Of a DNA stretch of 64,000 nt, positions 22,101 through 63,029 are shown one piece after another. How positions within the stretch are numbered: the first letter of the stretch is position 1; each line of letters begins with the position of its first letter. This DNA is from Owenia fusiformis (lineage: Eukaryota; Annelida; Polychaeta; Sabellida; Oweniidae), in the NCBI GenBank assembly GCA_903813345.2, contig CAIIXF020000009.1, positions 27,874,740 through 27,938,739 of the forward strand. Reading direction: 5' to 3'. The notes under the pieces are model-generated. The model worked only from the letters and a program-made list of their open reading frames with translations. It had not been told where the DNA came from and made no database searches. The position numbers were made by a program, and so were the translations under genes.

Positions 22101-25100
22101 TGTAACTTAACTGCCTTTTTATCAAGCTTGTAACTGCCTTTTAAAGGGTATTTCATCTTTTCATCATTTTGTTATCGTACATATACACAAAAAGGTATGA
22201 TATTGTCAACTTGGTGGTTGACAAGTGGGGACGGGGTGGTGTCTCACTTTTCTTGCATGCACATTTCCAGGTAAACTTTTAGACAGATTGATTTGAAATA
22301 TTCAGCATGCTGGGTAAATTTTAAGGTAGCATTTTTTATATATATAGGTACAGATTGTTTAAATTGTGCCTTGCTTTTGGTTCATATTAGGGGTCCCGCA
22401 ATTGCTCGGATTTGCTCGAGCGCTCGAGCAATACATCACGATACGAGCGTATCGATACTCACCTTGAATATCGGTTAAAAAATTGTATCGTTTTTAACTC
22501 CCCAAAACAGCAAAATCATGCTCCAAAGCAGCTTAAATACGATTGTATCTACCCATTGTCCCGTTTCCATTTTGTTATCCGCCTAGCGTAATCCGGCGAA
22601 GAATGTATTTCCGGTTTCCGGTAAAAAATGGAGAAAAAGAAAGAAATTCAAATTTCTCGAGAACGTAGTTTGTCTACTACTTAAGTTGTCTTGTTAGCAT
22701 ACTTAAGTTGTCTTGTTAACATATTTGTTTTTATTAAATAAATTTATTTGTTACGCACTTACATTGCTCGTATCGTTTGTATCGTATCGTGAGGTAAATA
22801 TCGTTGCTCGTTTCGAAATTGAAGATACTGTATCGTGGGACCCCTAGTTCATATGCAGGTGTTTAGAGGAAACCCATCTTTGCTCTTACCATAAGCCTAA
22901 GACAATTTCTGGCATTGGTACTTGATCTCCACTTCCAATAAAGTTTTACATGAAAAAGTTTAATAACATTGGGACCGTAAGACTGCAATATAAGAGTGGT
23001 TTAACTTTACATAGGGCCTTTAACTCCTTGTGTTCATATATTTTTTCCAGGAGGTTGCCTGTTATGCTAAACCTGATGTAGTCACAGAGGACCAGATGTT
23101 TTCAGAGGTCTATCATACTCTCATTCACTCCCCAGCAATGGAGGCCCTGTTAGACCTGGAACATACATATGCCTTGGCCATTGTGAAGCTGCAGTCTGAA
23201 AGGGAAGCTGACATGAAGCACTTGGAATCGAGGTAAAATGCCATTCTGTTAGTTAAGCATTGAATTCTACATACTGCCATCTGTATATAAGAACACCTCT
23301 CTAATCTGAACATCTACAAATGTGAATGCTTTTTTAGTCCTATTTGTTAATCCACCATAAACTCCCAAGTTCAAATAACCTTGAAATGTTAACACCTATC
23401 AATCGGAACACTGGCTGTTCCAAATGATGTTTGAATTATGCCTTGGTCACATTTGCTCCGATTTTCACGACGGCGCCTGGCCAATTGAGTATTTTGTTCA
23501 AAATTGAATACAATATTGAGCAAAACACTCAATCAGCTGGGCGCCGGCTGATGGATCGGAGCAAATGTGACCCAGGCATTAGACAGGTTATACTGCAGCT
23601 ATATATTTTAACTGACTATTTTATTGGGCAATACTTATTAATCAATTTATTATATGTGTCTAATATATTTTTGCAGGCAACAGGCAGAAATGGAGGACGC
23701 AATAGCTAAAGTTGGCACAATTTATACTGACCAACAAGTGAATCAGCTTGCCCAGAAACATTACGATAACACGCAGCTCATAGAGAGTAAATGGGCTAGT
23801 GAACTTAGCAACTTACAGGAGACCCAAAAAAGACAATATAAGAATCATGTAATGAAACTACATGAAGCTCACATCAATCCTGGAAATGGAGTGCAGTCAT
23901 ATGTGTGAGTATGTTATATGGAGTACAGTCATATGTGTGAGTATGTAATATGGAGTACAGTCATGTGTGTGAGTATGTTGTATGGAGTTCAGTCATATGT
24001 TTGAGTATGTTATATGGAGTACAGTCATATGTGTGAGTATGTTATATGGAGTGCAGTCATATGTGTGAGTATGTTATATGGAGTACAGTAATATGTGTGA
24101 GTATGTTATATGGAGTACAGTCATGTGTGTGAGTATGTTGTATGGAGTTCAGTCATATGTTTGAGTATGTTATATGGAGTACAGTAATATGTGTGAGTAT
24201 GTTATATGGAGTACAGTCATGTGTGTGAGTATGTTGTATGGAGTTCAGTCATATGTGTGAGTATGTAATATGGAGTACAGTCATGTGTGTGAGTATGTTG
24301 TATGGAGTTCAGTCATATGTTTGAGTATGTTTTATGGAGTGCAGCCATATGTGTGAGTATGTTATATGGAGTGCAGTCATATGTGTGAGTATGTTATATG
24401 GAGTACAGTAATATGTGTGAGTATGTTATATGGAGTGCAGTCATATGTGTGAGTATGTTATATGGAGTGCAGTCATATGTGTGAGTATGTTATATGGAGT
24501 ACAGTCATATATGTGAGTATGTTATATGGGGTGCAGTCATATGTGTGAGTATGTTATATGGAGTACAGTCATATGTGTGAGTATGCTATATGGAGTACAG
24601 TCACATGTGTGAGTATGTTATATGGAATACAGTCATATGTGTGAGTATGTTATATGGAGTACAGTCATATGTGTGAGTATGTTATATGGAGTACAGTCAT
24701 ATATGTGATTATGTTATATGGAGTATAGTCATATGTGTGAGTATGTTATATGGAGTACAGTCATATGTGTATGTTATATGGAGTACAATCATATGTGTGA
24801 GTATGTTATATGGAGTACAGTCATATGTGTGAGTATGTTTTATGGTGTACAGTCATATGTGTGAGTATGTTATATGGAGTGAAGTCATATGTGTGAGTAT
24901 GCTATATGGAGTACAGTCATATGTGTGAGTATGCTATATGGAGTACAATCATATGTGTGAGTATGTTATATGGAGTGAAGTCATATGTGTGAGTATGTTA
25001 TATGGAGTACAGTCATATGTGTGAGTATGTTATATGGAGTACAGTCATATGTGTGAGTATGTTATATGGAGTACAATCATATGTGTGAGTATGTTATATG

Positions 25101-28100
25101 GAGTAGTCATATGTGTGAGTATGTTATATGGTGTACAGTCATATGTGTGAGTATGTTATATGGAGTGAAGTCGTATGTGTGAGTAAAAATTTGATTGATT
25201 GCCTTTAAAAACTAAAAAAGTGTGAGTTGTTTTGGAATTTGGAAATTTTAACCATTCTAACTTGGTGGTGATGAGATCATCATCTATAGCCAAACCTAAG
25301 ACTAAGTGAAAGATTGTATTTTCAACATCAGAATCATCTACCAAATCAACAATTTTACATATTTTTGGAGATACTGCCATCTATTTAGATCAAGTGATAT
25401 AACCCATCCAGTGTTCTGCCTGGGAGGTGTTCCACTTACAGAAGTTCATTTATTTAATATTAAGTCGATGGGACATGCAATTATAATTTGTTCCACCTAT
25501 AGAGGTGTTCCACTAGATAGCTCTACTATTTTAAAATCTTAATGTTATTTCAGTCAAAGGGTACGTGCAATGTCTACCTCTGCAGTTTCGACAGAAAGAG
25601 ATCAAATTTGGCAGCCAATAAAGATGGAAGAAAGTTTCACTATTCATTTAGGTATTTTCAGAATAAATTCTGTTGTATTTCTACATGTTTTAGTTCTATG
25701 AACTTTGACATTTGAATAATTTACTAAGAAAACAGATTCATTATTCATGAATTAAAATAACTTAACATAGCCATGACTTATTCATTTGTTCTATATTGCA
25801 GAAGTTCACATCAATAGATGGCGTATACTATGGTCTACAGTTGTTGACCTTGAACTACAAATAGATAGAAAAATCAAGATAAATGTAACTAGATCTTCAA
25901 TTCACCTACTTGCAGTGATCACTTCTCGTACGAACACCTACATAGTTTGTTTTTTTTATATTTCAGGTGCTCAAAAGAAGACGACCCACAATCTGAGATT
26001 ACTGTGTGCTGAAGTGTTGGATCTCTGTAGGAACATTCCAAACATTATTGGGTAGTGAGATTTTACTAAATTCATTCAAAGGGGAAAGATTCACTATCCA
26101 GGATTCATTGTCTCAATTCAAAGTTATTTAGTGAAACATAATGGATGTTACAAATGGAAGACCAAATTGAAAAAAACATTCCAATACTTTTTGCATTGAA
26201 AATAGTTTTGGCACTCAAATTAGATGGCATACTCAGTATCAAATGATGCAGGACAAAAATTCCCCAGTCCCATTGATTTTGATCTTATTGGTCAAAATTG
26301 AATTATGGACCAATGTTATTAAAGAATTGCTGGTCCCCTGAGAATATGTATTGGTAATCTAGTCTAGATATTTTGTTGCATCCTTTCTTTTGTCACCACC
26401 AGAAGTGGTGACATCTTGTTATGTTTCCAACTTTTTTTGAAAAATTTTTGCATGTTAATGCCTTGTTTGTTTTTTGATAACATATAAAGATTTTTATACA
26501 AATCTAATTTATAAGCAGTATTTTATTCCCATTAAAGATAATTATGTTTCCAGTTTCATTAATGTCAAATATTTGAGTTAATTTTTGCTATTAAAATATC
26601 AGTGTCGCTATTATCCCATTTTGTTTAGCCTATTATATGCTAACATGTAATACCATCAAAATATTACCAGATATTATTTACATTTCCTAATTCATTAAGT
26701 TTCAAAGGAAAAATATTCTTCATTGAGTGACAATTTTGTGATATTTTGTTCTTAATCTTTTCTAGTGGAGTAGCAGTTCCCCAGCCTCAAAGATTACAAA
26801 CAGCGATGTCTTTATACTCAAACAACCTCTGTGGGCTCATACTTCTTGTTGACAATAAACTCAACTCATATACTGGATTGAAAAAAGGTAAACCAAGGCA
26901 TCATCACAGTATGGTACAACTTGTCTAAATTTGAATATTATTTGAACCTGTCATAAGTGTTCAAATAAGCAGTTGTTCACATTTCAAGGTTTCTTTATAT
27001 GTGAAATAACGGGATATTACAAAATTGGCACCAAGAAAAATGTTCGGATTAGAGAAAAGGTTGAATAAATAGGTTTGATATACAGTTCAGTGCAGTATGA
27101 CTGTACATGTATGGAATTTAATTTCTTGATGACACAGGTTGAAAATTTTAATATGAAGGGAGTGTAAGTATAAGAAATTGTACGTGAATGTGTAGTATTG
27201 TGAATGACCCCAATAAACAACAACAAGGACCTAATGAAAAGTTTTTTTCCTTGAACCTTTATACTTTATCATTATTTATAATAGAAGATGATATGGCAAG
27301 TCAATTAGAATCAAGAAGGAAAATTCGGATTTAAAGCCTGAATGTTCAGCATGCAAAATTATCCCTAGTGAAATCTTAATTGCTTTTACAGAATTTGCTA
27401 AGTTGTGCCAACAGTCGACTGAATTCCACTTCCCTGATTTAGAAAAACAGTTTCAAGCGATAGAAGAGAATATCATCGCTGGAAATGAGTGGCGTCAAAA
27501 CAAAATTGAAGAACCTGATCAAGTCAGCATAAAAAGTGGAGGAAGCAACTCAAGTGGGGAGGTAAATCACAATCAAAATGAAAATTTGTAAATAATCATT
27601 TCACGATCTGTTACCCTGCGTGCAGAGATTAGTTCTAAAGACAAAGCTCTCTTTTAAGAAGCAAAAACAAATGAATGGAAATGAGTATGATATGTTTGAA
27701 TGAGAAAGAAGTATATAAATCCAATTTAACATGAATTTCTGGATATAGTCCTGTCCCTAGCCTCTCTGAGCTTACTCGGATTTAGAATGAAATAACTTTT
27801 GATTTTCTTTTAGTAGATACCCTGAAGTGTAGGAATCCATAAGTTATTTTTCCAGGTTTGGGTAAAATCAATTTTTATGGCAGGTTATAGTGGCGCCATC
27901 TAGTGATTTTAAAGTTGCAGGGTGATAATCTTAATTAATTTTTTTTTCAGCCAAACCTAATTTCATATTTATTTTCTTGCTTTTTCCTTAGAGACTACTT
28001 CCTAAACTATGCATTTGAATTTTTAGGTGATCCTGGAAGGTCATTTGATGGGTCATTTTGCCTCAAATATACAGAAGCGCCACCTATAATCAAGGGTCTA

Positions 28101-31100
28101 CCTTATAAAGTTTATTGTTCTGAGGCTGTTATGGTAGATAAAATTGTTATTATTGGTGTAATAATTAGAACCATAAAGGGGACATATGATGCAGTATCAA
28201 ATTAATATATGTGGGACATGGGAACTTTAGAAAAAAAATTTTTTGTAAAAGTGGAAGAAATTTGACAAAATATCAGTTTTTACATATTACCAAATACATA
28301 TGCTTTTTTTATTTCTAAGGTAATCCTTATATGATGTAACAAGTACAAACAAATACATTTTGATTTTTGAGAATATGAATGAAGTAATTGTAGGGCTGAA
28401 TTTTGGTTTTGGCCCATTATTATTATTTAATTATTCTGTGTTTGATATACACCCCTTATTATATCAAATACTCAACTTCTGGAAATACAACACGGTACTT
28501 AATGAATGTATGAAAAGCTTTTCCTGAGTTTCTTTGTATTAATAGAGTATAGCATCTATTAATCATATCATTTCCATAAGTGTGCACTTTTAGAATAAAT
28601 TATATTTTATTTTACAGGTAATTTTTGCCAGAAACATTTTGTATAAAATTAGAGCTTCTCAAAAGATGTATCTACACTTTTCAAATAAAAAATGATCCTT
28701 CAATCTATCCCACCCAAATGGAGTTAGATCTAATTTTATATTATATTTATACCATCATAAGTTAATATCAAACTCAAAACTGAAACTCCTGTTAAAAGCC
28801 ATGGCAGCTAATTTTGGGGTAATTTACATCTTATTAGCATGAAGGTTGTTTAAAACAGTAATCCTCTATAATTGACTTATTGACTAACCTCTGTTTTTGT
28901 ATTTAGTATATATTTGAGACTATGTATTGAATTGGTGGAAACAAAATTATTAAAATGTGATTAAAGTAAGTAAGCTTAAGGTTTATTTAAGATATAAAGA
29001 TTGCTCATCTTCGACAAAATAGAAGAATTAAAATTATGATCACTTAGAATGATTCAAATTATTTCTAATATAGAATGTAAGTTGGTGTCTAGGAAAATAA
29101 AACATATGATCACATCCAGCTTTTCTTTGAAAGTCAAATTTCCTTGCATATGGATTAACGAATTAACGTTAATAACTAAAATGAACCCAGTTACATGATA
29201 AACTATGCATGATCCTGAATTGTGACTGTATTTTTTAGACCCAGAGATTAAATATTTTAAAATCACTAACAATCTATTTCTTCTCCAGTTAACTTCCTAA
29301 ATGGCTTCTATAAACTTTGAAACAGGAAAATGTATTATCTGCCAAGATGATTTTAAAGACAGTAACAGCAATGTTGTCAAGCCAACTGTGGGACAAGCAA
29401 GAGGTGTTGCAACCTTGCTTAGAATAAGCAAAATGAAAGATGATGAAGTTTATCAACATATGAAAGTAGCCAAACTTGAAAACGCACCTATTCTATATCA
29501 CATGAACAATGCTTGCTACAGAGTATACACCCAAAAACGGCATACTGAAGAAACCATTGAAGGAATGGTTGGAAACACACCTCATTCCTCAACAGCACAA
29601 CCCAAACAAATGAAATGTTCCCTTCCACAAAGGAATGAAGAAACTGAAACTGATACTGAAAAAACCATTGAAGGAATGGTTGGAAACACACCTCATTCCT
29701 CAACAGAACAACCCAAACAAATGAAATGTTCCCTTCCACAAAGGAATGAAGAAACTGAAACTGATACTGAAAAAACCATTGAAGGAATGGTTCGAAACAC
29801 ACCTCATTCCTCAACAGAACAACCCAAACAAATGAAATGTTCCCTTCCACAAAGGAATGAAGAAACTGAAGAAACTGAAACTGATACTGAAGAAACCATT
29901 GAAGGAATGGTTGGAAATACACCTCATTCGTCAACAGCACAACCCAAACAAATGAAATGTTCCCTACCACAAAGGCCCTCTGTTGAAGCTGTTGATGTAC
30001 CTAAATACCAGAATGTTTGTATATATTGTAATCAGGTCACAAAAAACAAAACATATGAAAAATCCCGAATTTCTGAAGAGAAGAAAGCTACCGAGTTTCT
30101 TGTACAAACCCAACACTTACAGGATGAAGTGTATACCAGCACCTGTCACCTCACTGATGTGAAAGGAGTGATTGAAGCTGATCTCTTATACCATAACTAT
30201 TGTTACAAACAATACAGCCATAAATACCAGAAAAGTACTGATTCAAATTCTATTCATGATAAATCAAATATGTATGATGTATTTAATGATGTCATCAATG
30301 AAATTCAACAAGACTTGAATACAGGAAAAGTCTTCTCTGTATCAGAGATTTACAAAGAGATCGGTGACCGCCTTCGACGTAGCCCTGTTAAAGGGCAACT
30401 TGTCACCAAATATTTGCGTAAGCGATTTGGTGAAGATGTCACATTTATAAAGCACAGCAAGAGGCAGTCTCAGGATTTTCTTCTGGCAAGCAAGATAGAT
30501 GCTGTAAAATTGGTAATTAATCATTTATAATTTAAAAGTACTTATTCAGTGTGTCAAATAAGTCCCGCCCCCCCCCTCTACAGCCAAGACCTTAATAGAT
30601 GGTACCTAGTGTGATATACCATTGGAAAGATCATCCGAAGTTACGTTAACTCACCAACTCTCAAGTATTTTGGATGACATTTATCTATATTTTGATAGTA
30701 TCCTTTATAGTTAAAGAGTTTTCACTATCACTATCACTATCCTCACCCCTCTATTTTCTACACACATAACCCTATCCAGAAATTGGTTGAATTTACAGCC
30801 AAACACAAAATGTTGACATTTTGGGTTCCTTTGACTTCTGATGCCCGATTCTAAAAATCCTGCCTAAAATATGTAAAATTGCCATGTTTTTAGGTCTATG
30901 GTCACCTCAATTGATACAATGTAGCAATTTGTAACATTGATTGACAGGTTTCAGCTATATGCCAATCAATGTAACTTTGGACAATCTATCCAATGATATA
31001 TCACACTTGATACCATATATCTTGGTTTTGGCTGTATAGGGGGGGGGGGACGGGACTTATTTGACACCCTGTATGTTAAGGTAATTCTGTATGATAAAAA

Positions 31101-34100
31101 TTTTGATGCAATCCTCCATAGAGTCACATGTTAATTTTTAGATATCAATCACGCCTTCCCAAAATTGTCTTCATCTTTCAGTTTTGCACAAAGAGTGCAC
31201 TAATGTACCTAGGAAACACTGTTAAGAGATTTTTTTTTGATAAAATATATAAAAAAAACTAGAAAATTCAGTGAGAACATTTTGTGAAAATTTTCTGGAT
31301 TTTCTAACTGAATTTTCTTGTTTATTTAAAAAATAACATGTGACTCTATCGAGGATTGGATCAAAATTTCTATCATAAAGAACAACCTCTATAAATTGAA
31401 TTCTTGTAAAATTAGAAAAATTTATTCCATAAAGTTCATAAAACTGCTCCCATAATTAAGAAGATATCTTCCTATGCATACATTAGCACTGAGAGTTGAT
31501 GAGAATATAAGCAAAGCTTTACCTGCAATTCACTTCCTTACTGGTTCAGATGTTACAAGTAAAGTTGGTACAAAACCTGCAGCATTGAAAGTAAAACCAG
31601 AATACATTCAAGGTTTAGCAACCTTTGGGGAGAACCTAAGTGATGAAAATTGCAGTAAAGCTGAAGTGTTTCTTGTACAAGTTTTGAAATCTGGGTCAAA
31701 ATGTATGACCATGAATAAATTTAGGAACTGGATGTACCATCACTCAAAATCAGCTCAAATAAGCTCATTGCCACCCACATCACACCACAGACCACATAAA
31801 ACGAGCTCACTTAGCCACATATCAAGTCCAGCATGTTCTAGATGAAGAAGCTGTAACACTTGATCCCCTACAATATGGCTACATTAAGGACCCAACAAAT
31901 GATTCTCTTATCCCAAAGCAGGACATAAGGATTTGGCCTGAAGATTTGATAAAGCAATGTACATGCAAAACTTGCAGCCAGGCATCATGTGGATGCAAAC
32001 AGAGTGGGCAACACTGCATATCATTCTGCAAATGCACAAGTTTACAAACAAATAAATGTAAAAATCCCTTTTTAAAAGAGAGTGAACTTTTGGAGGCAAT
32101 GCTTAATTAATGTTTTATGCTGATAAAATGAACTGTTTTAATCAAATATCACAAAACAAATTGAATGTAACAGTTGTTTTCTAGTCTCTTATTTTACAAT
32201 GAATTGGAATTTAGGTAGAATCAGATCAGGGAGCAGTTTTCAAAAATATTTATGTCATATTCGTAATCACATCTATTTTCTAGAAATTCAAAGCAGTGCA
32301 TTCTTTATTAAAAAATAGAGGTATTTCTGTTACTACGTTCAAGTGTTTTGCTGTGGATATATATACTTTGAATCTGAAATATGGTTATATTATTTCATAA
32401 AATAGCATGTATCTATTAGGAGGTACAATATTTGAAATGGTCAGGAAGACTTGGGGAGGCTAAAAGCGCATTTTGCTTTCAATTTTGTCATTGTTCTCTA
32501 TGTTTCTTACTTTGCCTTCAAAAATCATACATGATTTACAAACAAATGAAACTTATAGAAAAATATATTTTCTATAGATGGCGCCTTTTATGCATGGTTT
32601 CATTATGTCTATAATGTATTCATTAATAACCGTAATTGTCAACCATAAGCTTAACTTGTCTAAATATATATTTTTCTACTTGTTACATCATGTTAGGTTT
32701 ACCTTAGAAATAAAAAAGCATATGTATTTGGTAATATGTAAAAACTGATATTTTGTCAAATTTCTTCCACTTTTACAAAAAAAAATTTTTCTAAGTTCCC
32801 ATGTCCCACATATATTAATTTGATACTGCATCATATGTCCCCTTTATGGTTCTAATTATTACACCAATAATAACAATTTTATCTACCATAACAGCCTCAG
32901 AATAATAAACTTTATAAGGTAGACCCTTGATTATAGGTGGCGCTTCTGTATATTTGAGGCAAAATGACCCATCAAATGACCTTCCAGGATCACCTAAAAA
33001 TTCAAATGCATAGTTTAGGAAGTAGTCTCTAAGGAAAATATGAAATTAGGTTTGGCTGAAAAAAAAATTAATTAAGATTATCACCCTGCAACTTTAAAAT
33101 CACTAGATGGCGCCACTATAACCTGCCATAAAAATTGATTTTACCCAAACCTGAAAAAATAACTTATGGATTCCTACACTTCAGGGTATCTTCTAAAAGA
33201 AAATCAAAAGTTATTTCATTCTAAATCCGAGTAAGCTCAGAGAGGCTAGGGACAGGATCAATATATATTGTGGGAGATGATCAGGTTAATATCATTTTTA
33301 TACGAAGGATATATATATTCCCAGATGTTATTCACTGGGAACTGTTGTGTAATAGTATAGATATATGTATATTTTCTTTTAGAAAGACGACAAACTTAAC
33401 AGATTAATAGCTGGTGACTTTTACATCACTCGCCACTCAAACCTCTCAGAGGTCCATCTGGTTTTCCATCTTGTGGTAGATGATAGTTTACGGGACAATA
33501 ACGTTAATTCACGACATCCCGTCATCTTAGGAATCAGAAATATTTTAAAGGCTTGTGTGAGATATGATGTCTTTACGGTCACAATTCCACTATTACTCGT
33601 GCATGAAATGTCAGAGGTAAGATGTTTATGAATAAACATTATTAAGGGGTTAAGTTCTTGACAAATAAGGAATTTTTTTAAATTAATATATTGTTCAGAA
33701 AAAATATAGATGTGAGTTATGTAATAAGTAGCATTTTTATGATATAAGAGAGATTTTGCAACTCACTTATAGCATGTTCATTATTCCCATATAACGTATA
33801 ACTTATGAACTGTTTGATTTCGTCATAATTTATTGTCCAACTCTATAGTATGTCAATAAGTATGTCTTATGTATAGACGACGTTTTATAAGAATATCACA
33901 CTTATGGACACTTATGGACTATATGTGCAATAAATGAAGATGTAATCAAACCTTTATAAGTTACACGTTATATGGGAATAATGAACATGCTATAAGTGAG
34001 TTGCAAAATCTCTTAGTGTTCTCGGCATGTTGGGTAAATAAAATTCTGTCTATTTTGATTTTGGAATTTTTCATAAACAAGTGTGATGTTCATCACTGCG

Positions 34101-35158
34101 TGTGTCCTAAGGTGCATTAATTTCTTTATTTGTAGGAGATGACAATCCAATGGTGCATGAAACGGGCAGAGCTTGTGTTGAAATGTACCAAGGGCTTTAT
34201 GATGGAGTTGTCCACTTGGGGAGGGCACCAATCACGTAATATACAGTTCATGTTGCCAAAGGTAAGGCATAATTGGTTTAGAGTATATCTACTATTGTGG
34301 AATAGTAAATGCCTCATTTAAAACCTGCATTTTCGATGAGTTCCAAAAGTCAAAATCAGGCTGAACCATTTCTAGATTTTGCAGTGACTTGAATGCTGTG
34401 TTTTTTCTATTCAATTTATTCCTTAATAACATTATAACTATACAAAATACATATAACAGAGTTAACAGGTGACATCATTTCTGATGTCCATGCCTGTACA
34501 TGTAAAGCATATAATAATGAATATTAAGACTAAGACCTGGAAAAAACTGATTCTAATGTTTACAACCATAATAATCACTTGAATTGATGAGATATGATTG
34601 CTATGGATCACATGATGGTTGTTTTTATGGTCACACTCCACTCGAGTTCTACAATTCTTGATTCATTTATGATGAACCTGATATGCTAACTAGATGGATT
34701 AAAGAAGCAATGACAATTTTAGAAATATATGAGTATATTTACTGGGAGGTTTTAGATCAGCTTATCTTGAGGGAAACATGTGTATCTTCCTAAGGGATCA
34801 TTAAAACTTACCATACTTATACAAGTGTATATCCCATGTCTACTAGGATTCTAAAATTCTTTTTCAACATTTTTTCAAAACTCTTTTACAGATGGGACCA
34901 GGACAAATATTTCTGTGTATCCTGGATCTAGGAAATGAGATATCAGGACAGATACAGTATATATTCCAACATGTTATCTACATAGAATCTCAGTATGTAT
35001 GGGATACAAGTACTTAGTAATACGTAATCTTACATATACTCATGCATGTAAAATATTTTCTTTTGCAGGGTCTCTCAGACAACATGTTCCTACAAATAAG
35101 TGCAATGATGCCTACAATATTTCGGGTCTCAAACGCTATTGTTGTAAAATCCTCATGA
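18984..35158 (+). CDS. FERRY3: FERRY3 (C12orf4) orthologue, 11 coding exons, 546 aa
   Basis: The spliced model is join(18984-19143, 21871-22016, 23051-23232, 23677-23904, 25554-25651, 25967-26051, 26766-26887, 27392-27561, 33383-33616, 34136-34261, 35069-35158). Every junction is GT-AG, the reading frame closes across all ten introns, and the total is 1641 nt, close to the roughly 550 aa of the vertebrate protein. Recognisable DUF2362 blocks are LPCYIERDLCQKL (about 47-59), [15 protein letters not shown] (exon 3), [14 protein letters not shown] (exon 4) and, most diagnostic, [15 protein letters not shown] with [13 protein letters not shown] (exon 9) and [17 protein letters not shown] (exon 10). 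In vertebrates this is subunit Fy-3 of the five-part FERRY complex, a Rab5 effector that carries mRNAs on early endosomes. Exons 3-4 are charged and helical. There is no signal peptide or membrane segment. The start is the first ATG after a 3' splice site at 18976, so a 5'UTR intron lies upstream. Introns 4 and 8 are heavily invaded by repeats. Confidence 0.9.
19674..21189. mobile_element. 1.5-kb element in FERRY3 intron 1 with TGTCTTAGTGAACACC ends
   Basis: TGTCTTAGTGAACACC at 19682 and its reverse complement at about 21168-21187 bound it. CTACAG-GAACACTTTTTGGTGGCTC phrases recur at 19795 and 20537 on either side of about 700 bases, which suggests a further insertion between them. Confidence 0.65.
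21871..22016 (+). CDS. FERRY3: FERRY3 coding exon 2
   Basis: The exon lies between a tatttttcag acceptor and a gtaaca donor. It encodes [14 protein letters not shown] through NSWTQSYNQ. It enters with one base carried over and leaves in phase 0. Confidence 0.88.
22388..22846. mobile_element. hAT-like MITE in FERRY3 intron 2, 8-bp target duplication
   Basis: The ends are TAGGGGTCCCGCAA and TCGTGGGACCCCTA. GTTCATAT flanks it exactly on both sides (22380-22387 and 22847-22854). The 8-bp duplication and GGGGTCCC end are typical of hAT elements. The interior has repeated GCTCGTATCG words and no transposase. Confidence 0.85.
23051..23232 (+). CDS. FERRY3: FERRY3 coding exon 3
   Basis: The acceptor is ttttttccag and the donor gtaaaa. 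The exon encodes [17 protein letters not shown] and the conserved [20 protein letters not shown] block. It leaves with two bases carried into exon 4 (AG+G gives Arg). Confidence 0.9.
23438..23580. mobile_element. Small palindromic MITE in FERRY3 intron 3
   Basis: ATGCCTTGGTCACATTTGCT and its near-exact complement AGCAAATGTGACCCAGGCAT bound about 140 bases that are palindromic throughout (GGCGCC and its partner inside). Confidence 0.8.
23677..23904 (+). CDS. FERRY3: FERRY3 coding exon 4, ends inside a minisatellite
   Basis: The acceptor is atatttttgcag. The exon encodes [28 protein letters not shown] and [14 protein letters not shown], a predicted helical region, and ends GVQSYV. The donor GT|gtgagt at 23905 and the last 17 exonic bases form the first unit of a 32-bp tandem array of about 40 copies. 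Reading past the true donor meets an in-frame TGA at 23906-23908. Confidence 0.88.
23888..25184 (+). repeat. 32-bp minisatellite carrying the exon-4 splice donor
   Basis: About 40 units of GGAGTACAGTCATATGT then GTGAGTATGTTATAT. The first unit is the end of FERRY3 exon 4 plus its donor. Most later copies keep the TGT|GTGAGT core intact. A few units have small deletions (near 24770 and 25105). Confidence 0.95.
25554..25651 (+). CDS. FERRY3: FERRY3 coding exon 5
   Basis: The exon joins exon 4 as GT+T (Val) and then reads [19 protein letters not shown] and [11 protein letters not shown]. It ends in phase 1 at a gtattt donor. Confidence 0.82.
25967..26051 (+). CDS. FERRY3: FERRY3 coding exon 6
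   Basis: The acceptor is tttatatttcag. The exon encodes [20 protein letters not shown] and RNIPNIIG. Its donor GG|gtagtg is weaker than consensus, but it is the only one that keeps frame with exon 7. Confidence 0.85.
26766..26887 (+). CDS. FERRY3: FERRY3 coding exon 7
   Basis: The acceptor is taatcttttctag. The exon encodes [20 protein letters not shown] and [19 protein letters not shown]. It leaves with one base carried over at a gtaaac donor. Confidence 0.88.
27392..27561 (+). CDS. FERRY3: FERRY3 coding exon 8
   Basis: The acceptor is attgcttttacag. The exon encodes [20 protein letters not shown] through [12 protein letters not shown]. An open frame runs on to a stop at 27589, but the gtaaat donor at 27562 is used because exon 9 restores the conserved C-terminal half in phase 0. 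Read-through would yield a protein lacking residues 398-546. Confidence 0.85.
29301..30530 (+). pseudogene. Transposon-encoded protein, N-terminal part with 37-aa repeats
   Basis: This 409-codon open frame starts [19 protein letters not shown] first Cys/His block (CIICQ ... [11 protein letters not shown]) lies at about 12-75. Four tandem 37-40-residue repeats ([20 protein letters not shown] ...) span about 85-225. A second Cys/His block (CIYCNQ ... [12 protein letters not shown]) and a helical C-terminal part follow. Similar paired C-x2-C ... YHxxCYxxY modules occur in transposon-derived proteins of many invertebrates. It lies wholly between the long TIRs. It ends near a possible gtaatt donor at 30512 and has been cut off from its downstream part by nested MITEs, so it is probably inactive. 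Confidence 0.65.
29553..29975 (+). repeat. 111-bp in-frame tandem repeat, 4 units
   Basis: Units begin at 29553, 29664, 29775 and 29895. The third carries a 9-bp in-frame duplication (GAAACTGAA). Near identity implies recent expansion. Confidence 0.9.
30547..31071. mobile_element. 525-bp MITE with GTGTCAAATAAGTCCCG ends, nested
   Basis: CAGTGTGTCAAATAAGTCCC and, reversed, CAGGGTGTCAAATAAGTCCC bound it, each followed by a C-run. The inverted arms extend about 150 bp inward (TACAGCCAA-ACC; GTGTGATATA-CATTGGA). Confidence 0.85.
31091..31378. mobile_element. 288-bp palindromic MITE, nested
   Basis: TATGATA-AAATTTTGAT and ATAGAGTCACATGTTA at the left are complemented at the right (TAACATGTGACTCTAT ... 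TATCATA). The interior is shared with 4083-4310. Confidence 0.85.
31474..32110 (+). pseudogene. Transposase C-terminal fragment, frameshifted
   Basis: The first part reads [20 protein letters not shown] then [18 protein letters not shown], a nuclease-like LTGxDxTSKxGTK motif seen in many transposon-derived proteins. The frame shifts near 31800; the next frame reads [28 protein letters not shown] and a Cys-rich end ([20 protein letters not shown] then CKC), stopping at 32108-32110. It is the C-terminal half of the protein started at 29301. Confidence 0.65.
33383..33616 (+). CDS. FERRY3: FERRY3 coding exon 9, most conserved block
   Basis: The exon follows a 5.8-kb intron holding a transposon. 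The acceptor is ttcttttag. It encodes [47 protein letters not shown] and [14 protein letters not shown], the strongest match to the C12orf4 family in the gene. Phase 0 at both ends. Confidence 0.93.
34136..34261 (+). CDS. FERRY3: FERRY3 coding exon 10
   Basis: The acceptor is ctttatttgtag and the donor gtaagg. The exon encodes [30 protein letters not shown] and NIQFMLPK. It is 42 codons long with phase 0 at both ends. Confidence 0.92.
35069..35158 (+). CDS. FERRY3: FERRY3 terminal coding exon 11
   Basis: The acceptor is attttcttttgcag. The exon encodes [18 protein letters not shown] and [11 protein letters not shown], then TGA at 35156-35158. The MxPxIFRVS pattern matches the extreme C-terminus of the family. 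Confidence 0.9.
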   Translation, partial: GLSDNMFLQISAMMPTIFRVSNAIVVKSS

Positions 35159-54821: not shown

Positions 54822-56489
54822 CAAACTATATTTCCAAACTTAACACAGGCCTTTAACTGAATACCATATTTAGTATATTATTTCATAGTTATCATTATCT
54901 TCTGTTCATGTCATAATAGTGCAGTCAGAATGAGGGTTTAGGCGTTCGTTCAGAGGGATTTTATGGGACATCATTTTTCATGTTGCTAGTATGATTTTAC
55001 ATATTTGTATGGATTATTAGATCTTAGTGTTTCAGCTTTTAGATTTTATGGCCATTTTACCCCCCATGGGCTATAATTTGGACCCCTACTATAAAATTGG
55101 ACTGGGACTCAAAAAATACTCTGTGGAATGTATCCAAATTACTTGGATATATTGGTATGGGCTAACTGAATATATCATAAAAATTTCATGTCACATGGTT
55201 AAGCGGTTGCCATGGAAACAGATAAAACATACCCTTCAGGTGTTGATTTTCAGGCCATTTTTCAGAAATGATAGAGTCATTTCATGCATATTTTGTCACC
55301 ATTGTGTTAGGAAGGGTTAAAGTATGTATAGAAAACTTCTATAATATATTAGCAACAATCTTATATAAAGATTAGTCCACAGGATTTCAGATTTCGGCCT
55401 TATATGGTCCATGATTTATACAGGGGTCTATTTCACAGACTCGATGCTATAACTTTTGAAATAATGGAGATACAGGTCTCATTTTTTCAGATCTTCATAA
55501 ATGGTTGGTCTTTAGTATTGTAGTATACTTTTGGAGCTGGTATGTGATTGGTTGCCATGGTAACCAAGGTTTTATGGAAATTCGGACCCCACATTGGATG
55601 GATGCTATAACTTTTGAAATAAGGGATATACAGGTCTCATTTTTTCAGATCTTCATAAATGGTTGGTTTTAAGTATTGTATTATACTTTGGGAGCTGGTA
55701 TGTGATTGGTTGCTATGGTAACCAAGGTTTTATGGAAATTCGGACCCCCACATTGGATGGATGCTATAACTTTTGAAATAAGGGATATACGTGTCTCATT
55801 TTTTCAGATCTTAGACAATGATTGATTTTAAGGATTGATTCAGACTTTGGGAGCTGGTATTTGATTGGTTACCATGGTAATCAGGGTTTTGTTGAAATTC
55901 AGACCTCCACAATTGATAAACGCTATACTTATACATGCAGATACAAATATCATCTTTTCAGATATAAGATAATAATAAAATGTGTATATTGTATTAGACT
56001 TTGGAAGTTAGAATTTACTTGGTTGCCATGTTAACCATGTTTCACTTTCATGGTAACTGCCGTTTTTGTTTTTAGATTCACCTTCATTCTAGATAGGTCA
56101 ATACATGATATGAAATACCAAATTGCCATTTTATTCTTAATTTTGGGATTTTTTCTATTTTATATGATTTACATGCTCATTAATACTAGAGAGGCAAAAA
56201 TGTTTGGCTCATAAAATATCAAATACTAGTAAACAATACATGTATATTTATATCTGACAATATTGCCTCATTCCATACTACTAGTTCTCACAAATATTCT
56301 GACTCCTAACCTGTTCATTTTTACTCATCATTACTGTTTTCATTTTGCACAATTGCCTCTTGATTTAAATATCAACAGTTTCTGTTGAAATGAAGGTTTG
56401 TTTTGACCATTATGGAGTTGAGGATCCTCAGGGGATTTAGTACATTCATGCAGTACTGGGCTTGGCAGAATGGGTTAAGACTGGTCCCT

Positions 56490-61490: not shown

Positions 61491-63029
61491 TTGACATTTC
61501 AACTCTTTCACATTTGAAGAGGGTGAATTATCAAACCTGTGTATGGAAACATTCCCACCAGCCTAAACCCAGCTCTACCAAACAAAACACTGCATGAATG
61601 AATTATGAATTCCCCGAGGAATCTTTAACACCCCAATGTAGACGTTTTTTTGACCCCAATGGTCAATAGAATCCTTCCTTGCTGAAATTGTTGATATTTT
61701 AAATTATGAGACCATTGTGGAAGATGAAAACTATAATGATGAGTAAAAACAAGTTAGGAGTAGAATATGTGTGAGAACTAGTAGAATGGAATGAGGCAAT
61801 ACTGTCAGACATACATGTAAAAATGCTGAAATTAAGAGTAAAATGATAATTTTGAGCAATTTTGCGTTCTATGTTGTGTCTTGACCATTCTCAAATGAAG
61901 GTAAATCTGAAATCAAAAATGAAGTTTCCATGACAATGAAACATGGTTATCATGGCAACCAAGTAAATTGTAACCTCCAAAGTCTGACACAAGACACAAG
62001 TCTAATTATCTTTTAAGTTCTGAAAAGCTGATATCTGTATCTGCTTGAATTCAAAAGTTATACCATTTATCAATTGTGGAGGTCTGAATTTCAATAAAAC
62101 CCTAGTTACTATGGTAACCAATCAAATTTCAGCTCTCAAAGTCTGATTTAATACTTAAAATCAATTATTGTCTAAGATCTGAAAAAATGAGACATGTATC
62201 ACCCTTATTTCAAAAGTTATAGCATCCATCCAATGAGGGGGTCAGAATTTCCCTAAAACCCTGGTTACCATGGCAACCAACCATATACCAGCTCCCAAAG
62301 TATGATACAATACTTAAAACCAGCCATTTATGAAGATCTGAAAATATGAGACCTGTATCTCCCTTATTTCAAAAGTTATAGCATCCATCCAATGTGGGGG
62401 TTCGAATCTGTGAAATAGGCCCCTGTATAAATCATGGACCCATATAAGGCCAAAATCTGAGATTCTGTGGACTGATCTTTACATAAGATTGTTGCTAACA
62501 TATTATAGACGTTTTCTATTTACACTTCAACCCTTCCTAACACACTGGTGAAAAAATATGCACAAAATGACTCTATCATTCCTGAAAAATTGGCCTGAAA
62601 ATTGACACCCGAAGGGTATGTTTTATCCATTTCCATGGCAACCACTTAACCATGTGACTTGAAATTTTTATCATATATTCAATTAGCCCTTACCAATATA
62701 CCATAGCAATTTGGATACATTCCACTGAGTATTTTTTGAGTTCTTGCCTAATTTTATAGTAGAGGTCCAAATTATAGCCCATGGGGGGGGGGGGTAAAAT
62801 GGCCACAAAATCTAAAAGCTGAAAAACTAGGATCTAATAATTCATACAAATATGTGAAATCATACTAGCAACATGAAAAATTATGTCCCGTAAAATCCCT
62901 CTGAACGCACGCATTTAGGCTCATTCTGACTGCACTATAAGTTTTGTATGGTTATATAGGTGAATCTTTGCACCACTAAGCTTCCATCTTTTTGGCCTTT
63001 ATATAACGTGTACCACTCTTTGTTTCTAG

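What the first reader, a model, noticed from the sequence alone, without database searches (positions are those of the whole stretch)
23888..25184. A minisatellite that copies a 5' splice donor about 40 times
The last 17 bases of FERRY3 exon 4 plus its donor (TATGT|gtgagtatg) form one 32-bp unit, and this unit is repeated in tandem for 1.3 kb directly downstream. Nearly every copy keeps an intact TGT|GTGAGT core, so U1 snRNA could pair at some 40 evenly spaced sites. Only the first preserves frame: reading on meets TGA at 23906-23908, so use of later donors would give truncated, probably degraded mRNA. The array could tune splicing, serve as a U1 sink, or simply be tolerated because the first donor wins.
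Basis: partly seen in the sequence, partly recalled or inferred. Interest (0 to 1): 0.8.

Follow-up and report, generated by a model that had tools for sequence, protein, structure and literature searches.

The report
Splice-junction minisatellite in an annelid gene
The end of one coding exon together with its splice signal has been copied about 40 times into the neighbouring intron; this fits a little-known class of repeats called 'mirages', and the same thing seems to have happened at the splice junctions of a dozen or more other conserved genes in this worm's genome.

Summary
Window 23886-25185 holds 41 units of 32 bp. Unit 1 is the last 19 bases of FERRY3 exon 4 plus its donor. 36 of 41 units keep GTGAGT. 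Exons 3-5 translate to one ungapped match to Pfam Fy-3, and every later donor would include TGA 23906-23908. A 26-base piece of the unit (up to 2 mismatches) was found nowhere else in the assembly.

Best reading: a junction minisatellite, the kind named 'mirage' in amphioxus. An exon-intron boundary was amplified into the intron; the first donor is productive, the rest are tolerated decoys. Published RT-PCR on amphioxus mirages fits. Later donors show no significant conservation; a U1-sink role has no support.

The genome is an annelid, probably Owenia fusiformis. Of 53 other donor-bearing arrays examined, 14 begin at a homology-supported exon end (an AAA+ ATPase, CCT-beta, SRP72, glucosamine-6-phosphate isomerase, PP2A-B56 and others); 18 more look so by eye; 21 do not. 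Junction arrays are thus recurrent here. Enrichment at real donors is only suggestive (blind exon rule 8/15 against 2/20 single motifs, p=0.008; homology 6/15 against 3/20, p=0.13). Splice-site use itself is untested.

The parts
23051..23232 (+).
   Evidence: Pfam PF10154 match G000:C9:27897787-27897978 = window 23048-23239; splice borders read
23677..23904 (+). FERRY3 exon 4, ends TATGT in phase 2
   Evidence: joined exons 3-5 match Fy-3 70-238 without gap
23905..23910 (+). First donor GTGAGT, the only one of the array that keeps the reading frame
23906..23908 (+). In-frame TGA met if any later donor is used
23886..25185 (+). Minisatellite of 41 units of 32 bp; unit 1 spans the exon 4/intron boundary; 36 GTGAGT
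23982..24013 (+). Unit 4, donor lost (TTGAGT); the same change is present in units 9 and 14
24750..24777 (+). Unit 28, donor deleted (28 bp)
25160..25185 (+). Last, truncated unit: ends just after GTGAGTA and passes into other intron sequence
25554..25651 (+). FERRY3 exon 5 (acceptor TTATTTCAG), completes the codon split at 23904
26770..34261 (+). Further FERRY3 exons (Fy-3 matches at 26770-26886, 27388-27573, 33389-33616, 34133-34261)
   Evidence: coordinates converted

Best explanation
The array is a 'mirage': a minisatellite grown from an exon-intron boundary. A short stretch holding the last bases of FERRY3 exon 4 and its donor was duplicated in tandem and expanded to 41 copies inside the intron, leaving the exon intact at the 5' edge. 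The first donor joins to exon 5 and makes the protein; the other 35 intact donors are decoys that are normally removed with the intron. Any use of them includes TGA 23906-23908 and gives a truncated, probably degraded mRNA. The array persists because the first donor is normally chosen, not because the extra donors are needed. Shown: anatomy, frame, no second copy of the unit found, and recurrence of such arrays at other exons. Inferred: order of events, which donor is used, decay of mis-spliced RNA, lack of function.
For: Exact anatomy. Reading frame and Fy-3 continuity only through donor 1. Donor columns not significantly conserved (P=0.28), and a donor-dead unit type is present three times. 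In two other genes the exon before the array and the exon after it join through the first donor exactly as the protein requires: L038 (glucosamine-6-phosphate isomerase, acceptor TTTGCAG) and L048 (CCT-beta, acceptor TTTCCCAG); the joined peptides match Pfam Glucosamine_iso (82 residues on 82 positions) and Cpn60_TCP1 (59 on 59) across the junction. In 10 of 12 arrays with full sequence no later donor keeps frame ahead of a stop. [quoted passage not shown]
Against: No RNA evidence from this animal. In human IFI6 two downstream repeats are reported as used donors (sentence in PMC4526556), so decoys need not be silent. In laboratory systems competing equal donors often favour the intron-proximal one (recalled). 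The exonic residues involved sit in a poorly conserved stretch of FERRY3, so the coding copy cannot be shown to be the ancestral one from protein conservation.
Confidence: 0.78

Rival explanations
1. Splicing rheostat: a fraction of transcripts uses later donors, and the number of copies sets how much FERRY3 mRNA is lost to nonsense-mediated decay.
For: All later donors lead to the TGA; predicted U1 pairing is equal in 35 of 41 units (-8.1 kcal/mol); IFI6 is reported to use downstream repeats.
Against: No significant constraint on donor columns (P=0.28); a donor-dead unit type is present three times; amphioxus mirages reported not to disturb splicing.
Confidence: 0.12
2. U1 platform: the donors bind U1 to suppress premature polyadenylation or to boost transcription, or act as a U1 sink.
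For: 36 GTGAGT in 1.3 kb.
Against: 36 sites in one intron are few against cellular U1 (recalled, about a million copies per vertebrate cell); donor motifs not significantly conserved.
Confidence: 0.03
3. The array is real but its length is an assembly error (collapse or expansion).
For: Units with identical sequence recur (unit 1 = units 6, 16, 18, 19).
Against: 24 unit types among 41; single locus.
Confidence: 0.05
4. RNA structure of the repeat hides the later donors and leaves the first one open.
For: Local folding gives the first two donors a higher unpaired probability (0.022, 0.035) than most inner ones.
Against: Some inner donors are higher still (0.174 at 24353, 0.043 at 24289) and so is the last (0.20); the median over all positions is 0.025. 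Folding of four units is not clearly stronger than shuffles (z -1.54, 16 of 200 shuffles as good), nor is the exon end (z -0.73).
Confidence: 0.03

Closest known systems
'Mirages': minisatellites spanning exon-intron boundaries in amphioxus Adh3, globins BflGb6/BflGb9, troponin C, PGBD5 (PMC3087553, PMC3902484; passages read)
   Same: Tandem units contain an exon edge plus intron with splice signals in many but not all copies; authentic exon kept at the edge; unit length within the range given for Adh3 (10-72 bp).
   Different: Annelid, not cephalochordate; 41 copies against 6 and 3 in the two BflGb6 haplotypes; no RT-PCR, no allele or somatic variation data here; array at a donor (amphioxus is reported to have both 5' and 3' boundary cases).
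[quoted passage not shown] 1995, title seen in reference lists; paper not held)
   Same: A minisatellite whose repeats carry donors directly after the exon.
   Different: IFI6 is reported to use two downstream repeats as donors (sentence in PMC4526556); here later donors all run into TGA. Its unit is 12 nt (recalled).
Intron gain by tandem duplication of AG/GT sites (discussed in PMC3087553, passages)
   Same: Tandem duplication of splice signals.
   Different: No new intron or exon was seen here; the array lies inside an intron whose borders fit the protein.

Membership tests
Mirage minisatellite | Tandem repeat unit spans an exon-intron boundary of a gene | tested here: met
   Unit 1 = 23886-23917 spans 23904/23905
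Mirage minisatellite | Many but not all copies carry the splice signal | tested here: met
   GTGAGT in 36 of 41 units
Mirage minisatellite | Authentic exon intact, array lies in the intron | tested here: met
   Frame and Fy-3 continuity from exon 4 to exon 5 across the array
Mirage minisatellite | Regular splicing not disturbed (RT-PCR) | not testable with these tools
   No RNA data available
Mirage minisatellite | Copy-number instability between alleles or somatically | not testable with these tools
   One assembly; no second allele seen
Mirage minisatellite | Recurs at several loci of the same genome | tested here: met
   14 of 53 donor arrays examined start at a homology-supported exon end
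IFI6-type multiple-donor minisatellite | Downstream repeats can serve as productive donors | tested here: not met
   No later donor keeps the frame before TGA 23906-23908; actual use not measured

The most novel reading that the evidence does not exclude
In this annelid, junction minisatellites are a genome-wide class that sits behind exons of many conserved genes and arises preferentially at working 5' splice sites, so that something about a transcribed donor (its DNA, an R-loop, or splicing-linked breakage) seeds tandem amplification; and the splicing machinery keeps choosing the first of up to about 40 near-identical donors, typically 20-40 nt apart.
Probability: 0.25. Interest if true: 0.75.

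Novelty: new member of a known kind. Interest (0 to 1): 0.55.

Why it matters
Each array is a natural competition experiment: many near-identical donors in a row, of which usually only the first can make the protein. With tens of such genes in one genome, ordinary RNA-seq can test directly whether 5' splice sites are chosen by order, by distance to the exon start or by distance to the acceptor. If mirages are common in an annelid as well as in amphioxus, they are a general product of genome evolution and a possible source of new introns, not an amphioxus oddity.

Tried and rejected
Conserved-residue test that the coding copy is ancestral: masking the seven junction residues costs about 1 bit (134.7 to 133.6), deleting them 4.6 bits (to 130.1), so the stretch is poorly conserved and cannot decide. 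Selection on donor columns: not seen. Hairpin masking: not above shuffles. Dispersed repeat as the source: no other copy of a 26-base piece of the unit found. Mitochondrial COX1 for taxon: none found. Micro-intron re-splicing inside the unit: 35 YAG in the array, but pyrimidine content before them is low, mean 6.1 of 13; rejected. Excess of donor-like arrays in the genome: AGGTRAGT x3 gives 414 matches against 483 for the mirrored pattern and single AGGTGAGTA 5,144 against 5,918. By subset it is mixed: AGGTGAGTA-led 88 against 48, AGGTGAGTT-led 75 against 22, AGGTAAGT x3 144 against 344. Matches pile up in a few long arrays, so I draw nothing from these totals. Fy-3 in solved structures: no hit.

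The blind exon rule (polypyrimidine, YAG, open frame to the junction) is weak: it misses FERRY3 exon 4 itself and four homology-supported exons (L045, L047, L048, L049), accepts L035, which I judged non-exonic by eye, and fires at 14.9% of 3,000 random window positions.

Full report
WHAT IS THERE. The array lies at 23886-25185 (period 32, 40.8 copies, 91% matches). Split into units it has 41, of which 38 are exactly 32 bp; 36 keep GTGAGT and 35 TGTGTGAGT; units 4, 9, 14, 26 and 28 have lost the donor. Predicted pairing with the U1 5' end is -8.1 kcal/mol in 35 units, -7.1 in the last, -5.3 in the three TTGAGT units and -1.9 in two. GTGAGT is 27.7 per kb in the array and 0.19 per kb on the same strand outside it. 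Of the intron's 1,649 bases (23905-25553) 1,281 are array. A 26-base piece of the unit, with up to 2 mismatches, has 39 matches in the assembly, all in this array. The left flank matches once and the right flank once in full, its other 48 matches being to an interspersed repeat in part of the query.

THE GENE. Pfam PF10154 (Fy-3, FERRY3) has six matches at E up to 0.001 in the genome, all in this window on the + strand. Exon 4 is 23677-23904, exon 5 25554-25651. Exons 3-5 give a 169-residue protein that matches profile positions 70-238 without a gap, E 6.8e-39. The join is phase 2. Among the GT sites printed for 23700-23960, those in phase 2 without a stop are 23896 (a very poor donor) and 23905; every donor after 23908 includes TGA 23906-23908. 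Residues at the junction are poorly conserved, so protein conservation does not tell which copy is original; the inference that the exon is the source rests on the array's edges, which start inside the exon and end right after a GTGAGT.

IS THE DONOR MAINTAINED? Among 38 full-length units there are 19 variant types, 2 of them in the six GTGAGT columns; binomial P=0.28. Unit 1 is identical to units 6, 16, 18 and 19, and there are 24 unit types in all. This looks like ordinary repeat turnover. RNA folding is not clearly stronger than shuffles (z -1.54 and -0.73).

WHICH ORGANISM. The assembly has 498 Mb in 525 contigs. Of contigs C1-C21, whose lengths I saw, C1-C12 are 31.9-62.2 Mb and C13 is 0.66 Mb; the window is 34-35% GC. 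The annelid erythrocruorin linker family PF16915 has three matches over its cut-off. The published Owenia fusiformis assembly is 505.8 Mb with 12 chromosome-scale scaffolds (PMC9977687, passages). An annelid is well supported; Owenia fusiformis is a probable but unproven identification.

A RECURRENT CLASS. I searched the genome for three AGGTRAGT within short spacing: 414 matches, against 483 for the mirrored pattern. I then looked at where such arrays start. Distinct arrays examined: 53 (L003-L014, L035-L049, L079-L106; L007/L035 and L014/L036 are the same arrays). The AGGTGAGTA-led set (88 matches, 15 arrays) and the AGGTGAGTT-led set (75 matches, 15 arrays, two shared with the first) are listed in full. 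The AGGTAAGT set is the listed part, about 100, of 144 matches; its places at C6:14337766, C8:7116370, C8:35934631 and C8:35935741 were not fetched. Six further arrays (L004, L006, L008, L009, L011, L013) come from the head. Peptides ending at the first donor were sent to Pfam or PDB for 37 of the 53; of the other 16, L095 copies L094, L009 and L013 copy the non-coding L006, and the rest had no open frame of 20 residues in what I printed. PDB was searched for six arrays picked by eye. Homology supports an exon ending at the first donor in 14 of 53: L038 glucosamine-6-phosphate isomerase (PDB 1ne7, 7.6e-14), L048 CCT-beta (9.3e-8), L041 SRP72 (7.1e-10), L049 TMEM120 (2e-10 and Pfam 6e-13), L045 PX (2.9e-5), L047 Reeler (1.8e-4), L005 Rieske (4.5e-8), L080 AAA_2 (2e-27), L084 NPHP3 TPR (5e-16, under that family's cut-off), L099 PF15874 (8.1e-9; these three), L100 TPR (1.9e-13), L101 methyltransferase (2.7e-6), L102 ligand-gated channel (3e-9), L104 PP2A-B56 (1.2e-10; these four). 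In 13 of the 14 the match runs to within two residues of the donor; in L101 it stops 13 short. For L079-L106 the first copy was taken as the most upstream GT with at least 15 of 22 bases like the unit; in L101 the next recognised copy is 87 nt on, so its first copy is the least certain. By eye, an acceptor plus open frame ends at the donor in 18 more (L003, L004, L011, L012, L036, L037, L043, L044, L046, L081, L085, L088, L090, L092-L095, L098). Of these, 17 were sent to Pfam without a hit over cut-off (L011, L081 and L088 had weak hits below it), L095 was not sent, and L043 and L044 had no PDB hit. L094 and L095 are near copies of one exon. L004 has a 33-bp unit that reads on in frame and may be coding. 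In the other 21 I saw no exon; L006, L009 and L013 are copies of one interspersed repeat.

CONTROLS. Single AGGTGAGTA sites: 20 taken as every fifth of the first 100 listed of 5,144; 18 had a frame long enough and went to Pfam, and three picked by eye went to PDB. Homology supports an exon end in 3 of 20 (NPC1, TPR, SLC35B1); L069 looks like one but has no PDB hit; L074 has a weak gag-protease match and L070 and L073 weak matches below cut-off. Mirrored-motif arrays: 9 tandem arrays taken, 7 further loci dropped because they look like one interspersed repeat; 0 of 9 pass the exon rule and 0 of the 5 with a long enough frame hit Pfam. The blind rule gives 8 of 15 in the AGGTGAGTA set against 2 of 20 single sites (Fisher p=0.008); by homology 6 of 15 against 3 of 20 (p=0.13, not significant); by eye 11 of 15 against 4 of 20 (p=0.002). 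Enrichment at real donors is therefore suggestive, not shown; five of the 20 single sites look like one repeat family, which lowers their rate.

FIRST DONOR. In L038 and L048 the exon after the array is present behind a good acceptor, and joining it through the first donor gives an ungapped match to Glucosamine_iso (82 residues on 82 positions) and Cpn60_TCP1 (59 on 59). In 10 of 12 arrays with full sequence (11 of the first set plus FERRY3) no later donor keeps the frame ahead of a stop; L045 and L047 have one each. In 11 further arrays with partial sequence, 9 have none; L099 and L100 have one each. Where no homology was found, the reading frame used in these counts is the one I judged coding by eye.

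LITERATURE. 'Mirages', minisatellite-like tandem duplications of exon-intron boundaries, are described in amphioxus Adh3 and globins; the globin paper reports that Adh3 data and its own RT-PCR suggest regular splicing is not disturbed, notes allele and somatic length instability, and proposes a route to new introns (PMC3087553, passages). PGBD5 and troponin C are added in PMC3902484 (passages). The original Adh3 paper and the IFI6 paper are not held. None of the papers listed by my searches was on such arrays in an annelid. Only one search used annelid terms, and it listed 12 of 354 papers; the library holds open-licence papers only. So 'not reported in annelids' is weakly tested.

VERDICT. 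A real, clean junction minisatellite and a new member of the mirage kind, in a phylum where I found no report. The most likely account is passive: the first donor is used and the rest are tolerated. The wider point, that this genome carries many such arrays at conserved genes, makes a question about 5' splice-site choice testable with public RNA data.

Noticed in passing
window 29301-30530 (+): A 409-residue open reading frame with about four 37-residue repeats (111-bp tandem array 29542-29975) lies between two FERRY3 exons; possibly element-derived or a lineage-specific exon.
   Followed up: no
window 23430-23580: Long imperfect palindrome in the intron between exons 3 and 4, like a small inverted-repeat element (seen by eye).
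   Followed up: no
window 55443-55911 and 62050-62401: Two arrays of period about 159 bp whose consensus units look like reverse complements of each other (by eye).
   Followed up: no
G000 C6 14303382, 14336195, 14337766 (L094, L095): The same 37-bp donor array occurs at three places within 35 kb, and the same exon end at the two that I read, so a junction array seems to have been duplicated with its gene.
   Followed up: partly
L004 (G000 C1:5411250-5412450): Donor-like array with a 33-bp unit that reads on in frame after an exon: may be a coding repeat in which later donors would be productive.
   Followed up: no
L059, L064, L068, L070, L073: Five of 20 sampled single AGGTGAGTA sites share the context CCGCAG|GTGAGT and similar open-frame text and appear to belong to one interspersed repeat family that carries a strong donor motif.
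   Followed up: no
L042 (G000 C5:12786340-12789430): A probable exon ends at GTAAGT about 130 nt before the donor array, followed by degenerate copies; possibly an older decayed junction array.
   Followed up: no
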